This document shows, in pieces, positions 32,661 to 37,110 of a stretch of DNA of 64,000 nt. The position numbers were made by a program, and so were the translations under genes. The stretch comes from Mycobacterium noviomagense (GTDB lineage: Bacteria; Actinomycetota; Actinomycetes; Mycobacteriales; Mycobacteriaceae), in assembly GCF_010731635.1 (NCBI RefSeq), contig NZ_AP022583.1:4588001-4652000 (forward strand), in the 5' to 3' direction. Positions within the stretch are counted from its first letter, which is position 1; each line of letters starts with the position of its first letter. The notes beneath the pieces are model-generated. The model made no database searches. It saw nothing but the letters and a program-made list of their open reading frames with translations, and had not been told where the DNA came from.

Positions 32661-34327
32661 GCCCAAAACTTGACATCGGCAGCGTCCTGGCCCGCCAAGC
32701 CGACGACATCGACACCCGTTATCACCCCGCAGCGGCGGTACGCCGCCAGCTCAACAAGGTGTTCCCCACGCACTGGTCGTTCCTGCTCGGCGAAATCGCG
32801 CTGTACAGCTTCATCGTGCTGCTGCTCACCGGGGTCTATCTGACCCTGTTCTTCGATCCCTCCATGACCGAAGTCACCTACAACGGCGTCTACCAACCGC
32901 TGCGTGGTGTGGCGATGTCGAAGGCCTACGAGTCAGCTCTGAACATCTCCTTCGAGGTCCGCGGCGGACTGTTCGTCCGTCAGGTCCACCACTGGGCGGC
33001 ACTGATCTTCGCCGCCGCGATCATGGTGCACCTGGCCCGTATCTTCTTCACCGGCGCATTCCGCCGGCCCCGCGAAACCAACTGGGTCATCGGCTCGCTG
33101 CTGTTGATCCTGGCGATGTTCGAGGGCTACTTCGGCTACTCGCTACCCGACGACTTGCTTTCGGGTATCGGCCTTCGGGCGGCGCTCTCGTCGATCACCT
33201 TGGGCATGCCGGTGATCGGCACCTGGCTGCACTGGGCGCTGCTAGGTGGCGATTTCCCATGTGGCGGTCTGGGTTACAACTGTTCTGAGGGCGGGTTCCT
33301 CATCCCCCGGCTGTACGCCATCCACATCCTGCTGTTCCCGGGCATCATGCTGGCGTTGATCGGATTGCACCTGGCATTGGTGTGGTTCCAGAAGCACACC
33401 CAGTTCCCGGGCCCGGGGCGAACCGAGGAGAACGTGGTCGGTGTCCGGGTGATGCCCGTGTTCGCCGTCAAGTCCGGAGCGTTCTTCGCGCTGGTGGTAG
33501 CCGTCCTCGGCTTGATGGGCGGGCTGCTGCAGATCAACCCAATCTGGAATTTGGGCCCGTACAAGCCATCTCAGGTATCCGCGGGTTCGCAGCCGGACTT
33601 CTACATGATGTGGACGGAGGGCCTGGCCCGTATCTGGCCGCCATGGGAGTTCTACTTCTGGCACCACACCATCCCGGCTGCGGTGTGGGTCGCCCTGATC
33701 ATGGGTGCGATATTCGTGCTGCTGACCATCTATCCGTTCCTGGAAAAGCGGTTCAGCGGCGATTACGCGCACCACAACCTGCTGCAGCGGCCGCGTGACG
33801 TCCCGGTGCGCACCGCCGTCGGTTCGATGGCGGTTGCGTTCTATATGGTGCTGACGCTCAGCGCGATGAACGACATCATCGCGTACAAGTTCCAGATCTC
33901 GCTGAACGCGACGACGTGGATCGGCCGCATCGGCATGGTGGTGCTGCCGCCGGTCGTCTACTTCGTCGCCTATCGGTGGTGCATCGGGCTGCAGCGCAGC
34001 GACCGGGCAGTGCTCGAGCACGGCATCGAAACCGGCATCATCAAACGGCTGCCTCATGGCGCCTACATCGAGCTGCACCAGCCGCTGGGTCCGGTCGACG
34101 AGCACGGCCACCCGATACCGCTGGAATACCAAGGCGCACCGGTACCCAACAAGATGAACAAGCTCGGCTTGACCGGGTCGCCGGGTTCCGGCAGCTTCCT
34201 GCGGGCCGATCCGCTGTCGGAGGATGCGGCATTGCGCGAGGCGGCGCACGCCGCCGAACAGCGTGCCCTCACCGCGCTGCGGGAGCGGCAAGAGCGCAGC
34301 AACGGCTCACCCAACGGCCAGCACTAG
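32657..34327 (+). CDS. qcrB: Cytochrome b subunit of the bcc complex
   Basis: 556 residues, ATG overlapping the qcrA stop (ATGA). Eight or nine helices; heme ligand His pairs lie in [20 protein letters not shown] and in the helix [20 protein letters not shown]. The quinol-oxidation loop appears as [11 protein letters not shown] after WPPWEFYFW. Oxidises menaquinol at the outer face and pumps protons by the Q-cycle. It has the C-terminal extension typical of actinobacteria, ending in an Arg/Glu-rich helix. Target of the imidazopyridine telacebec in M. tuberculosis. Confidence 0.96.
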
Positions 34328-34338
34328 CCAGTAATCCG

Positions 34339-34370
34339 CACAGCCGGCACTGCGGTCGGTGTCGGCTGTG
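34339..34370 (+). terminator. Candidate hairpin terminator after qcrB
   Basis: CACAGCCGGCA and TGTCGGCTGTG form an 11-base stem with one mismatch around a 10-base loop, 12 bases after the qcrB stop. There is no long U-tract. It probably ends the ctaE-qcrCAB transcript before the thiocyanate-hydrolase cassette. Confidence 0.6.
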
Positions 34371-34477
34371 TTGGCGCGGTTTCCTCCCGGTGGCGGGTCT
34401 TGAGGGCTTAAATGGTCTGTGGCTGCGATGTGGGCAGCTGTCAGCAGGCCGACCGGCCCCACCACGAATGGACCCGC

Positions 34478-35317
34478 ATGACAACCCCTTTCGACCGGGA
34501 GTCGCAGCTGGACCTGGTGGCCCGGCTTCAGTCCGGATTCAGCGACCTTCCGGACGCACCGTATCCCGACCTGCTCGACCACCAACGGTTAGCTGCCTAC
34601 ATGAAGACGCCGCACGACGTGGGCGGCGAGCCGGACGCCCCCATCGAGTTCGTCAACAAGCAGTACGAGCAGTGGGAGCACAACATCTATGTCCTCTGCG
34701 AGGTCCTCGCCTGGCGCGGAATCTGGGTCTCGGAGGAACGACGCCGGATCGGCAACGTAGACGTTGGCCGCACCAACTATTTAGGGCTGCCCTACTACGG
34801 TCGTTGGCTGCTGGCCGCCGCCCGCATCCTGGTCGATAAGCAGCACATCACCCTGGGGGAATTGGCCGATCGGGTGACCGAGGTCAAACAGCGCTACGCA
34901 GGCGGCCTCGAGGGCAGGCAACTGGAAGCCAGGCCCAAGATCGCCGGCGACGGCTCTCAGGTCGAGCGCAACCTGCACCACACCCGCGCGCTCGGCAAGG
35001 GCGACCCGCAGGTGTACTCCGGCCAGGCCGGCCAGCCGAAGTTCCAAGTCGGCGACACGGTGCGGGTGCGGGAGTTGCCGGCCCTGTTCTATACCCGCAC
35101 CCAGGAATACGTCCGCGGCGCTCAAGGCGAGGTCGTCGCCGTCGCCTACGAGAGCCTCGCCGCCGAAGACGAGGCTTGGGATCGGCATGACCAACGACCG
35201 GAATGGTTCTACATCGTCCGGTTCGACCTGTGCCGGCTCTGGCATCGCTATACCGGCACCGAACGCGACACTTTGCAAACCGAGCTTCCCGAACGCTGGC
35301 TGGAAGCGTGCCGCTAG
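34478..35317 (+). CDS. Thiocyanate hydrolase-type beta-alpha fusion subunit (nitrile hydratase beta superfamily)
   Basis: 279 residues from ATG 34478. Residues about 35-145 (TPHDVGGEPDAPIEF, ECLAWRG-like CEVLAWRGIWVSEERRR, NYLGLPYYGRWLLAAARILVDK) match the thiocyanate hydrolase beta subunit ScnB as I recall it. Residues about 166-277 (HHTRALGKGDPQVY, KFQVGDTVRVRELPALFYTRT, YESLAAEDEAW, PEWFYIVRF, LQTELPERWLEA) match the alpha subunit ScnA, an SH3-like fold. In Thiobacillus these are two chains of 157 and 126 residues; here they are one chain of nearly the same summed length, joined by a linker about 20 residues long. Classic nitrile hydratase beta is also one chain, but the sequence sides with ScnB/ScnA. 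Supports the metal-bearing gamma chain downstream. Confidence 0.85.
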   Translation: MTTPFDRESQLDLVARLQSGFSDLPDAPYPDLLDHQRLAAYMKTPHDVGGEPDAPIEFVNKQYEQWEHNIYVLCEVLAWRGIWVSEERRRIGNVDVGRTNYLGLPYYGRWLLAAARILVDKQHITLGELADRVTEVKQRYAGGLEGRQLEARPKIAGDGSQVERNLHHTRALGKGDPQVYSGQAGQPKFQVGDTVRVRELPALFYTRTQEYVRGAQGEVVAVAYESLAAEDEAWDRHDQRPEWFYIVRFDLCRLWHRYTGTERDTLQTELPERWLEACR

Positions 35318-35353
35318 CGCCGCCAAACCGCGTTGGGAGACAAAGGGATTGGT

Positions 35354-36082
35354 ATGACCGATCACGATCACGATCACGACCGCACCGCGGCGCCCATGGT
35401 GGACGAAATCACCGACTTCGAGGTCCTCGAGATCGCCATCCGCGAGCTGTGCGTCGAAAAGGGGTTATTCACCGCGGAGGATCATCGCCGGTTCACCGAG
35501 TTCGCCGAACAGATCGGACCGACCCCCGCCGCGCGCTTGGTGGCTCGCGCTTGGATTGATCCCGAGTTCAAGAGGCTCGCCTTGGCCGACGGAATCGCCG
35601 CCAGTCGAGAAGTCGGTGTCGACTGGCTGCAGCCCACTGGTTTCGGGACGCCGAGCGACTTCACGGCGCTGCGCGTGCTCGAGGACACGCCGACGTTGCA
35701 CCACGTCATTGTCTGCACGCTGTGCTCGTGCTATCCGCGACCGATCCTGGGCAATTCGCCCGAGTGGTATCGCACCCCGAACTATCGGCGCCGCATCGTG
35801 CGTTGGCCGCGTCAAGTACTGGCCGAATTCGGACTGTTCTTGCCCGAAGATGTGGCTATCCGGGTAGAGGACTCCAACCAGAAGCACCGCTTCATGGTGC
35901 TGCCGGTGCGCCCGGCGGGAACCGAGAACTGGGACGAAGACCAACTCGCGCAGATCGTCACCCGGGACTGTCTGATCGGCGTCGCGTTGCCGAAGGTTGG
36001 CGTGACCACCAATGCGATCACCGCCACCCGCCCGGCAATCCGCCCGGTGCAGTCACCGACCGGCGAGGGGACGAACACGTGA
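35354..36082 (+). CDS. Thiocyanate hydrolase-type gamma (cobalt catalytic) subunit
   Basis: 242 residues, against 243 for ScnC as I recall. The metal site is C121-T-L-C124-S-C126, the Thr-type claw seen in cobalt enzymes (iron forms have Ser), where the last two Cys are normally oxidised to sulfinic and sulfenic acids. The site is followed by YPRPILGNSPEWY with Arg at the position where nitrile hydratases usually have Trp, which favours thiocyanate hydrolase (SCN- to COS and ammonia) over nitrile hydratase. The N-terminus is MTDHDHDHD, a His/Asp repeat that may collect metal. Start ATG 35354; its TGA overlaps the next gene's GTG. Confidence 0.87.
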   Translation: MTDHDHDHDRTAAPMVDEITDFEVLEIAIRELCVEKGLFTAEDHRRFTEFAEQIGPTPAARLVARAWIDPEFKRLALADGIAASREVGVDWLQPTGFGTPSDFTALRVLEDTPTLHHVIVCTLCSCYPRPILGNSPEWYRTPNYRRRIVRWPRQVLAEFGLFLPEDVAIRVEDSNQKHRFMVLPVRPAGTENWDEDQLAQIVTRDCLIGVALPKVGVTTNAITATRPAIRPVQSPTGEGTNT

Positions 36083-36447
36083 GCGGGCCAGAGCATTCGG
36101 CCGAGCTCGCCGCCCGGATCGGGTTATTGCAGGAGATCGTTGAACGGAACCAAATTTGGGCCCGCATGGCCGCGCAGTACGGCGTCGACAATCCTGTACC
36201 GCCGTGGAAGTCCAGCCTGGATGGCATTTGCGACGCGCTCGACCGAGCACGCCGCGGCACAGAGGTTCTCAGCTTTGCCGAGCGACGTGCCGAAGAGGAC
36301 ACGCTGTCGTTAACCGCTTACTCCGGCCTGCCCTATCCGGAAAATCAGCTTGTCGCACTGGCCCACTCGCTGCTGGTGCGCGGCGTCATCAATGAGAACG
36401 AGCTTCAGGAAAAAATGGCCGCGATCCGGGCTCGGTTGCAAGCGTGA
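36079..36447 (+). CDS. Putative activator/metallochaperone of the thiocyanate hydrolase (P15K / nitrile-hydratase accessory type)
   Basis: 122 residues, GTG start overlapping the gamma-subunit stop (GTGA). It is helical; the C-terminal PYPENQLVALAHSLLVRGVINENELQEKMAAI resembles the P-W-E-..-A-..-L-H-E-x-G-x-x-x-x-x-E-x pattern of nitrile-hydratase accessory proteins, which share a fold with the beta-subunit N-terminus. Thiocyanate hydrolase of Thiobacillus needs a 15-kDa activator, P15K, encoded next to scnC, and this gene has the same place and size. No Cys is present, so metal transfer would use other ligands. Function inferred from context. Confidence 0.65.
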   Translation: MSGPEHSAELAARIGLLQEIVERNQIWARMAAQYGVDNPVPPWKSSLDGICDALDRARRGTEVLSFAERRAEEDTLSLTAYSGLPYPENQLVALAHSLLVRGVINENELQEKMAAIRARLQA

Positions 36448-36477
36448 CTCACCATGCCGCCTGCGGCAGTTGACGCG

Positions 36478-37110
36478 TCACTCCCCTGTACGTAGCCGGT
36501 GGAGCCACCGCAGGCTTTGCCAGGCGACCAGCGGCATCGTCGCTGTGACTATCCCGGCGATGACGTAGGCCGTCCACGACGCGCCATAGCGGCCGATCGC
36601 CATCAGATAGGTCGCCGCCGCGACGCCGATCAATGCCAAACCCATCGCCGCTACCAGAGAAAGCATGCCGCGCAGCCAAATTCGGTCCACCGCCGCCGCA
36701 GAGTAGCCCGGCGGTCCCAGAGCCGTGAGCCGCTCGGTGCGGGCTTCCTCGGTCCCGGCGCGCGGCCCGACCTGCCCAGCCTTGGCCGGCTGCCGCCCCG
36801 CCCCACGGACCTGGGTGCCCGCCGGTCGGCCTGCGGGCGAAGCGGTGCGACGAGCGCGCAGTAATACCGGGATCGCGCCGGCGATGACCAGCGCAGAGAC
36901 GATGATGACGGCGTAGAGCACCGCCGGGGTGTGCTGGCTGCCCGTTCGTTGAAAACCCCGGCCCAAGTCGACCAGCGCGACCAGCGCGGCCACGCTCACG
37001 CCCACCAACGCCAACCACACTGCAGCGCACACACCCAGCAGGATCCGATCGATGGTCACCGGTGAGGCGGTGCCCCAGCGCTGCCGCGCCCCGGAATCCC
37101 TGAGACCCAT
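36478..37110 (-). CDS. DUF2561-type membrane protein (Rv2197c type)
   Basis: 210 residues. Four membrane helices in two pairs (ILLGVCAAVWLALVGVSVAALVALV and AVLYAVIIVSALVIAGAIPVLL, then LSLVAAMGLALIGVAAATYLM and TAYVIAGIVTATMPLVAW) separated by a basic Gly/Ala/Arg loop. ATG 37110 overlaps the mmpS3 stop (TGATG), so it is coupled to mmpS3. No known function. It is convergent with the thiocyanate-hydrolase cassette; a small perfect hairpin (TGCCGC-CT-GCGGCA, 36455-36468) lies between the stops and may terminate both. Confidence 0.84.
   Translation of the reverse strand: MGLRDSGARQRWGTASPVTIDRILLGVCAAVWLALVGVSVAALVALVDLGRGFQRTGSQHTPAVLYAVIIVSALVIAGAIPVLLRARRTASPAGRPAGTQVRGAGRQPAKAGQVGPRAGTEEARTERLTALGPPGYSAAAVDRIWLRGMLSLVAAMGLALIGVAAATYLMAIGRYGASWTAYVIAGIVTATMPLVAWQSLRWLHRLRTGE

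What the first reader, a model, noticed from the sequence alone, without database searches (positions are those of the whole stretch)
34478..36447. Thiocyanate-hydrolase-type cassette with beta and alpha subunits fused into one chain
The first gene encodes in one 279-residue chain what are the two separate chains ScnB and ScnA in Thiobacillus thiocyanate hydrolase, in the order beta then alpha. The second encodes the cobalt subunit with CTLCSC followed by YPRP, where Arg replaces the usual nitrile hydratase Trp. Seen: motifs, lengths, overlapping GTGA junction. Known: family motifs and the T. thioparus subunit sizes, from memory. Inferred: a COS-producing enzyme in a mycobacterium, or an intermediate between thiocyanate hydrolase and nitrile hydratase whose substrate is not known.
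Basis: partly seen in the sequence, partly recalled or inferred. Interest (0 to 1): 0.78.

Follow-up and report, generated by a model that had tools for sequence, protein, structure and literature searches.

The report
Fused-chain thiocyanate hydrolase of mycobacteria
Three genes in this bacterium, by all signs a mycobacterium, encode a relative of the cobalt enzyme thiocyanate hydrolase, which likely breaks thiocyanate down to ammonia and carbonyl sulfide; two chains that are separate in the studied enzyme are one chain here, a form found in most species sampled of the genus and probably made by a later re-joining of the two genes.

Summary
Observation confirmed: 34478-35317 encodes ScnB-like then ScnA-like parts in one chain, 35354-36082 the cobalt subunit, 36079-36447 (GTGA overlap) a P15K-type activator homologue. 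The cobalt subunit passes NCBI's thiocyanate-hydrolase model (392 bits, cut-off 291) and fails the nitrile-hydratase one; trees agree. What changes: (1) it is ordinary for the genus: 204 of 297 species have a strong match to the fused chain. (2) Arg after CTLCSC is not diagnostic. (3) It is probably not an intermediate: in relatives read, Trp goes with one beta chain (13 of 13), Arg with two (17 of 17 determinable), and the fused enzymes lie among two-chain ones, so re-fusion is the simplest history (3 changes; 7 fissions, or 4 without long rows, if fusion never happens). A second fused lineage with another linker is in alphaproteobacteria, including named Azospirillum and Roseomonas plasmids; one fusion for both is not excluded (p 0.118). 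(4) Here the cassette sits beside qcrB, unlike in 17 of 17 relatives. M. smegmatis genes of this annotation rise on nitrogen limitation (PMC4617892). Activity, cobalt and assembly are untested.

The parts
34478..35317 (+). scnBA: fused thiocyanate hydrolase beta+alpha chain, 279 aa
   Evidence: open frame; matches 2dd4_B over residues 10-144 and 2dd4_A over 164-277; Pfam NHase_beta_N 84.1 bits and NHase_beta_C 86.7 bits
34478..34897 (+). beta (ScnB-like) part, residues 1-140
   Evidence: alignment A2; RRR at residues 88-90 conserved in at least 95% of the 39 core SCNase rows, in all 8 split Mycobacteriaceae rows and in L187
34898..34966 (+). linker, about residues 141-163, not present in split enzymes
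   Evidence: by one regular expression 24 residues in 43 of 45 loci of the family's fused clade, 23 and 22 in the other two; AF2 confidence below 50 over residues 147-176 (weak model)
34967..35314 (+). alpha (ScnA-like) part, residues 164-279, beginning with the HHxxAxGxGDPQ segment that opens split proteobacterial alpha chains
   Evidence: Foldseek to 2dd4_A, TM-score 0.78 by target length
35354..36082 (+). scnC: cobalt-type (gamma) subunit, 242 aa
   Evidence: TIGR03887 392.4 bits, cut-off 291.45; TIGR01323 211.5, cut-off 249.85; 2dd4_C E 5.3e-112
35714..35743 (+). metal site CTLCSC followed by YPRP (Cys121-Pro130)
   Evidence: CxLCSC-YPRP in 46 of 46 fused loci and in L222 and L223
36079..36447 (+). 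activator homologue (P15K position), 122 aa, GTG start overlapping the scnC stop by GTGA
   Evidence: alignment A3; profile of A3 finds 2dd4_B at E 9.1e-12

Best explanation
The cassette encodes a thiocyanate-hydrolase-family enzyme whose beta and alpha subunits are one chain, and it likely hydrolyses thiocyanate to carbonyl sulfide and ammonia at a cobalt site. Inferred working: the third protein, a small homologue of the beta N-terminal domain, would act as activator that loads cobalt into the gamma subunit; gamma and the fused chain would then form a nitrile-hydratase-like pair (one fused chain per gamma) in place of the three-chain unit; the ammonia would feed nitrogen assimilation and the carbonyl sulfide would be removed by a beta-carbonic anhydrase related to COS hydrolase that is encoded elsewhere in the genome. 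Shown: gene order, fusion, family placement, conserved metal motif, linker of conserved length, presence of the beta-carbonic anhydrase homologue. Evolution (inferred from trees): the ancestor of thiocyanate hydrolases already had two chains, and the mycobacterial single chain arose by re-fusion, in the best trees separately from a second fused lineage in alphaproteobacteria.
For: Equivalog model passed by 100 bits; gamma 68% identical to T. thioparus gamma; the two halves 50-66% (beta) and 49-59% (alpha) identical over matched residues to the split chains of the 80 proteobacterial loci (no beta in L101). Tree of beta+alpha+gamma: 16 fused rows of the family in one clade (100/99*), joined with 23 split proteobacterial rows (100/97*), all SCNases apart from NHases at 100/100*; same with two plasmid rows added and in gamma-only trees. 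The three genes, and at the thresholds used only these, are shared by 17 of 17 neighbourhoods read. SCNase-type positions kept. Polarity: Trp with one chain 13 of 13, Arg with two chains 17 of 17 determinable, among 35 relatives read; minimum 3 changes on the tree, against 7 fissions without fusion, or 4 when the long rows L041, L194, L201, L202 are not counted. Linkers of the two fused lineages differ, and are alike within each. Genes annotated thiocyanate hydrolase beta and gamma in M. smegmatis are up 3.68- and 3.42-fold on nitrogen limitation (PMC4617892, table passage) and 2.37- and 2.35-fold in a PII deletion strain on nitrate (PMC11001197, table passage). Beta-carbonic anhydrase in the same genome: best solved match Rv1284 (E 2.8e-92), COS hydrolase 3vqj at E 1.7e-36 over about 100 residues. 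In the alphaproteobacterial plasmids the fused gene and scnC lie near CbtA/CbtB or HupE/UreJ genes, known cobalt or nickel transporter families (recalled).
Against: I found no activity, metal or assembly data for any fused enzyme. Fusion of the M. smegmatis genes is inferred (no alpha gene in the passages), not checked. The re-fusion history rests on deep nodes of modest support and on long branches (L041, L194, L195, L201); without the long rows the no-fusion history costs 4 against 3. One clade of all fused enzymes was disfavoured with one alphaproteobacterial-lineage row (p 0.0146) but is not rejected with three (p 0.118), so two separate fusions are not shown. AU groups were named after seeing the tree. 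Tyr205 of the fused chain is His in split Mycobacteriaceae SCNases as in NHases, so it does not support the substrate. The AF2 model is poor (mean pLDDT 59.5). The flanks differ between relatives and give no substrate.
Confidence: 0.78

Rival explanations
1. The single chain is the ancestral state kept from a nitrile-hydratase-like ancestor, and thiocyanate hydrolases split their beta chain more than once; the mycobacterial enzyme would then be close in build to the ancestor.
For: Trp-type relatives have a single beta chain (13 of 13 read); within SCNases alone the count is 2 changes, which does not tell gain from loss; the single-chain alphaproteobacterial lineage branches below the split Proteobacteria.
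Against: Arg-type relatives outside the SCNases are two-chain in 17 of 17 determinable loci; without fusion the tree needs 7 fissions (4 without long rows) against 3 changes; the two fused lineages have different linkers.
Confidence: 0.27
2. The enzyme is a nitrile hydratase or acts on another small substrate, with thiocyanate only a name carried over from the model.
For: Same fold family and metal motif; Arg is shared with relatives that pass the nitrile hydratase model; no assay.
Against: Fails both nitrile hydratase equivalog cut-offs (86.8 < 152.2; 211.5 < 249.85) and passes the SCNase one; keeps the gamma stretch GTPSD region at residues 97-102 where the eight NHase rows have a gap; lies inside the clade that holds the T. 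thioparus type.
Confidence: 0.15
3. The cassette is a silent insert beside qcrB with no function.
For: Partial matches, probably remains, occur in three genomes of the genus (G029, G118, G046); the place beside qcrB is seen in no relative examined; no promoter-like match upstream (a consensus that suits mycobacteria poorly).
Against: All three window frames are intact with the metal motif; the nearest relative by the fused chain keeps 77% identity there and 87% in gamma (L003).
Confidence: 0.07

Closest known systems
Thiocyanate hydrolase ScnABC of Thiobacillus thioparus (PDB 2dd4 and related; TIGR03887)
   Same: Homologous beta, alpha and gamma parts in the same order, CTLCSC-YPRP motif, activator-type gene directly downstream, equivalog cut-off passed; gamma 68% identical
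   Different: Beta and alpha are one chain with an added linker; different host group; activity unknown
Fused chain plus scnC on plasmids of Azospirillum ramasamyi (NZ_CP029832.1) and Roseomonas marmotae (NZ_CP061099.1)
   Same: One beta-alpha chain, annotated 'SH3-like domain-containing protein', followed by scnC annotated thiocyanate hydrolase subunit gamma and an activator-type frame
   Different: 42-43% identical to the window's fused chain; different linker; separate clade at 100/100* together with L187
Mycobacterium smegmatis MSMEG_6266/MSMEG_6267, annotated thiocyanate hydrolase beta and gamma (PMC4617892, PMC11001197; passages)
   Same: Same annotated pair; nitrogen-limitation response
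   Different: Sequences not compared by name here; whether MSMEG_6266 is fused is inferred
Two-chain thiocyanate hydrolases of the same bacterial family (17 loci among L160-L183)
   Same: Over the TIGR03887 cut-off; same plan with activator-type frame
   Different: Beta and alpha separate; alpha starts without the HHxxAxGxGDPQ segment in the six shown; a separate group (91/88)
Cobalt nitrile hydratase (alpha, single beta, activator)
   Same: Metal motif, single beta chain; activator gene (recalled)
   Different: Trp in place of Arg after the motif in the single-chain ones read (13 of 14; one Ile); below both NHase cut-offs; separate clade

Membership tests
Thiocyanate hydrolase (SCNase) | gamma subunit above the TIGR03887 equivalog cut-off | tested here: met
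   392.4 bits against 291.45
Thiocyanate hydrolase (SCNase) | tree placement with SCNases of the T. thioparus type, apart from NHases | tested here: met
   (T. thioparus DSM 505 row L073 in the sister clade; SCNases as a whole 100/100*)
Thiocyanate hydrolase (SCNase) | CxLCSC site followed by Arg in place of NHase Trp | tested here: met
   46 of 46 fused loci; but Arg also occurs in relatives that pass the NHase alpha model, so not diagnostic
Thiocyanate hydrolase (SCNase) | three separate chains, as in the T. thioparus enzyme | tested here: not met
   beta and alpha are one frame; I treat it as a variant, because NCBI's family model rests on gamma and both model and tree are met
Thiocyanate hydrolase (SCNase) | activator-type (P15K position) gene next to scnC | tested here: met
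   that it activates is inferred
Thiocyanate hydrolase (SCNase) | conversion of thiocyanate to COS and ammonia; cobalt; cysteine oxidation | not testable with these tools
   needs purified enzyme
Nitrile hydratase | alpha above the TIGR01323 and beta above the TIGR03888 cut-off | tested here: not met
   211.5 < 249.85 and 86.8 < 152.2
Nitrile hydratase | Trp after CTLCSC-YP | tested here: not met
   Arg129

The most novel reading that the evidence does not exclude
Chain number in this metalloenzyme family is reversible: one fission at the origin of the Arg-type branch made the two-chain plan, and later re-fusion, in the best trees twice (mycobacteria; alphaproteobacteria), restored a nitrile-hydratase-like single chain with new linkers; the mycobacterial product is a nitrogen-scavenging thiocyanate hydrolase carried by about two thirds of the genus and, as far as my searches show, never assayed.
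Probability: 0.48. Interest if true: 0.5.

Novelty: new variant of a known kind. Interest (0 to 1): 0.4.

Why it matters
The characterised thiocyanate hydrolases named in the papers seen here are from sulfur-oxidising proteobacteria, yet in these samples the enzyme is common in one mycobacterial genus (204 of 297 genomes) and rare in a Pseudomonadota sample (1 of 349). If active, it would make mycobacteria a source of carbonyl sulfide, in a group known to consume that gas (PMC7308577, passages), and users of thiocyanate nitrogen. The fused chain offers a simpler enzyme for structural work, and the fission and re-fusion history is a tractable case of changing subunit number. Current annotation hides it: on the two plasmids the fused chain is called only an SH3-like domain protein.

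Tried and rejected
Intermediate between SCNase and NHase: not favoured by tree placement. Arg as hallmark of SCNase: rejected. One origin of all SCNases of the window's family: AU p 2.5e-5, so at least two origins. All split SCNases one clade: p 1.2e-4, 9.8e-4 with two rows added. All fused one clade: p 0.0146, but 0.118 with two rows added, so not rejected. GlnR-box search upstream of 46 fused loci: void; my shuffled control was inflated by a sentinel value for sequences without a core match. Conserved neighbours: none beyond the three genes in all 17 loci; other frame families reach at most 5 loci, apart from other-frame ORFs over the same genes (up to 17). AF2 of the fused chain too weak to read the assembly; it finds 2dd4_A first and also NHase beta chains. 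Literature: searches of the open-access library; in the listings, abstract starts and passages that I saw none describes a fused ScnB-ScnA, and the search for thiocyanate hydrolase, scnA, scnC and 'fus' together found no paper; subscription papers are mostly not held, among them the 1998 cloning paper. PMC10098168 (passages) reports Actinobacteria as well represented among NHases and SCNases, and the words fused or fusion do not occur in it. A fused alpha-beta nitrile hydratase in Monosiga is reported (PMC2603476, listing and abstract start only), a different fusion.
Full report
Observation. The three frames are intact and as described. The first, 34478-35317, aligns to T. thioparus ScnB over residues 10-144 and to ScnA over residues 164-277; the second, 35354-36082, to ScnC over residues 3-233; the third, 36079-36447, starts with GTG inside the stop of the second and is a weak member of the NHase beta N-terminal domain family (22.4 bits, cut-off 21.5). 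The window is bases 4588001-4652000 of a 4.78-Mb single-contig genome with one gamma match. No call names the organism; Mycobacterium is inferred (and recall of the qcr-cta gene order).

Family. NCBIfam puts the cobalt-type subunit in the thiocyanate hydrolase gamma equivalog (392.4 bits, cut-off 291.45) and below the nitrile hydratase alpha cut-off (211.5 vs 249.85); the fused chain scores 86.8 against the nitrile hydratase beta cut-off of 152.2. In the comparison of 56 rows the metal motif is shared by all groups; the arginines at residues 88-90 of the fused chain are kept in at least 95% of the 39 core SCNase rows; the eight NHase rows have a gap at gamma residues 97-102 (FGTPSD in the window). 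Tyr205 of the fused chain is His in the NHase rows that have the segment and also in the split SCNases of the window's family, so it separates subgroups, not families.

How common. A protein search of 297 genomes of the genus (the window's own among them, drawn evenly from a larger group) found a match in 213 at E <= 1e-10. Nine of these are weak (5.5e-38 to 2.6e-11), leaving 204 with E <= 2.8e-100 by my count of the listing. The match table prints 150 rows; each covers at least residues 16-276 in one open frame without a stop; the other strong matches are not printed there. In 396 Actinomycetota genomes 9 pass the gamma cut-off, all in the window's family; in 201 genomes of that family 53 pass, in 13 of 31 genera. 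In 349 genomes of the phylum around the T. thioparus genome one passes, the centre itself; in 199 of the order around L100's genome, 2, the centre among them; in 337 of the class around G1388, only the centre.

Fused or split. Of those 80 loci 79 are split and one is undeterminable because the contig ends. Of the 53 positive genomes, 30 have a locus there: 24 new ones (7 fused, 17 split) and 6 read before (all fused); of the other 23, three had been read before (L038-L040, fused) and 20 were not read. In all, 46 fused loci from distinct genomes were in hand: 45 of the window's family, window included, and L187 from G1388, drawn from the order of a Hyphomicrobiales record. All 46 carry CxLCSC-YPRP. 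A protein search of 72,556 plasmid records matched 8: two alphaproteobacterial plasmids at 42-43% and six Rhodococcus plasmids at 27-28% annotated nthB. The two, Azospirillum ramasamyi NZ_CP029832.1 and Roseomonas marmotae NZ_CP061099.1, hold a fused chain annotated 'SH3-like domain-containing protein', then scnC annotated thiocyanate hydrolase subunit gamma, with HupE/UreJ or CbtB and CbtA genes, a TauE/SafE exporter and transposases nearby. They are 83% and 79% identical to L187's fused chain, 41% for the window. At least one genome of the window's genus (G170) has adjacent split beta and alpha frames instead (47% and 49%).

Trees. Beta, alpha and gamma segments, 56 rows, 490 columns: SCNases against NHases 100/100*; fused rows of the family 100/99*; split Proteobacteria 100/97*; these two together 100/97*; L187 next; split rows of the family outermost (78/74 as one group). 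Four of the eight NHase rows lacked the beta segment, one of them the alpha part too. With the two plasmid rows (58 rows) the topology is the same: the three alphaproteobacterial-lineage rows 100/100*, the fused rows of the family plus split Proteobacteria 99/96*. The gamma-only tree of 99 rows agrees. AU tests of holding groups together: all fused p 0.0146 with one such row and 0.118 with three; all SCNases of the family p 2.5e-5; all split p 1.2e-4 and 9.8e-4. The groups were chosen after seeing the tree. So a single fusion event for both lineages is not excluded.

Polarity. I read 35 loci of relatives below the SCNase cut-off (21, 14). Thirteen have Trp after the motif and all 13 have one beta chain; 19 have Arg and the 17 determinable ones have two; L194 (Ile, two chains), L202 (Ile, one chain) and L195 (His, undetermined) are the rest. 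Rooted on the single-chain ones, the gamma tree of 63 rows puts the Arg-type two-chain enzymes next to the SCNases (root split 92/89; inner nodes 84/98, 87/74, 94/48, 98/79; several long branches). The least number of chain changes is 3, with or without the long rows L041, L194, L201, L202; if fusion is forbidden 7 fissions are needed, or 4 without those rows. Junctions fit: in the nearest split relatives (L128, L129, L132, L133) the alpha start chosen overlaps the end of the beta gene by 8-17 bases in another frame; of 95 split loci measured, with the start codon nearest the beta stop taken as start, 35 overlap by 8 and 11 by 4 bases, 16 gave no plausible distance. The linker of the family's fused clade has one length in 43 of 45 loci; the three alphaproteobacterial-lineage linkers resemble each other and not that one.

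Place in the genome. The cassette lies between qcrB (NF050120, 740 bits) and a DUF2561 gene on the other strand, in the stretch that also holds qcrA, Cyt_c_ox_IV and CtaC genes. None of 17 relatives' stretches (10-19 kb) shows these neighbours at its cassette. In the DNA search of 119 genomes only the window's own genome matches through the whole stretch among the rows printed; in others the qcrB end and the DUF2561 gene lie close together without the cassette, for example in G070:C3 with 75 bases between the matches, and in G048 the cassette is on another contig. Whether it is transcribed with the respiratory genes is unknown (one search found neither promoter-like nor terminator-like sites in 34250-34520).

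Function. Inferred from the family: thiocyanate + 2 H2O to COS + NH3 + OH-. From literature: in M. smegmatis under nitrogen limitation MSMEG_6266 and MSMEG_6267, annotated thiocyanate hydrolase beta and gamma, rise 3.68- and 3.42-fold (PMC4617892, table passage), and 2.37- and 2.35-fold in a PII deletion strain on 1 mM nitrate (PMC11001197, table passage). The window's genome has two matches to the beta-carbonic anhydrase family; one (L189) is closest to Rv1284 and matches the T. thioparus COS hydrolase at E 1.7e-36, and a Mycobacterium strain is described as a strong COS degrader (PMC7308577, passages). The activator role of the third gene rests on position, homology and the P15K precedent (titles seen; otherwise recalled).

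Verdict. A real, intact, fused-chain variant of thiocyanate hydrolase; ordinary for its genus, unassayed as far as I could see, with a fission-and-refusion history that is likely but not secure.

Noticed in passing
L041-L061 and L201: A large group of relatives with CTLCSC-YPR and a split beta chain; the two members scanned (L041, L042) pass the nitrile hydratase alpha model; substrate unknown.
   Followed up: partly
G029:C1:1824888-1826036, G118:C6:604758-605277, G046:C1:1084597-1085980: Partial matches to the same cassette in genomes of the genus, probably remains of lost copies.
   Followed up: partly
G170:C19:54188-54867 (L206, L211): A genome of the same genus with adjacent split-type beta and alpha frames instead of the fused chain.
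   Followed up: partly
window 34325-36478: The cassette lies between qcrB and the DUF2561 gene; relatives examined have no cassette there.
   Followed up: yes
L187, L222 (NZ_CP029832.1), L223 (NZ_CP061099.1): A second fused ScnB-ScnA lineage in alphaproteobacteria, on plasmids near transposases and CbtA/CbtB or HupE/UreJ genes, with a different linker.
   Followed up: partly
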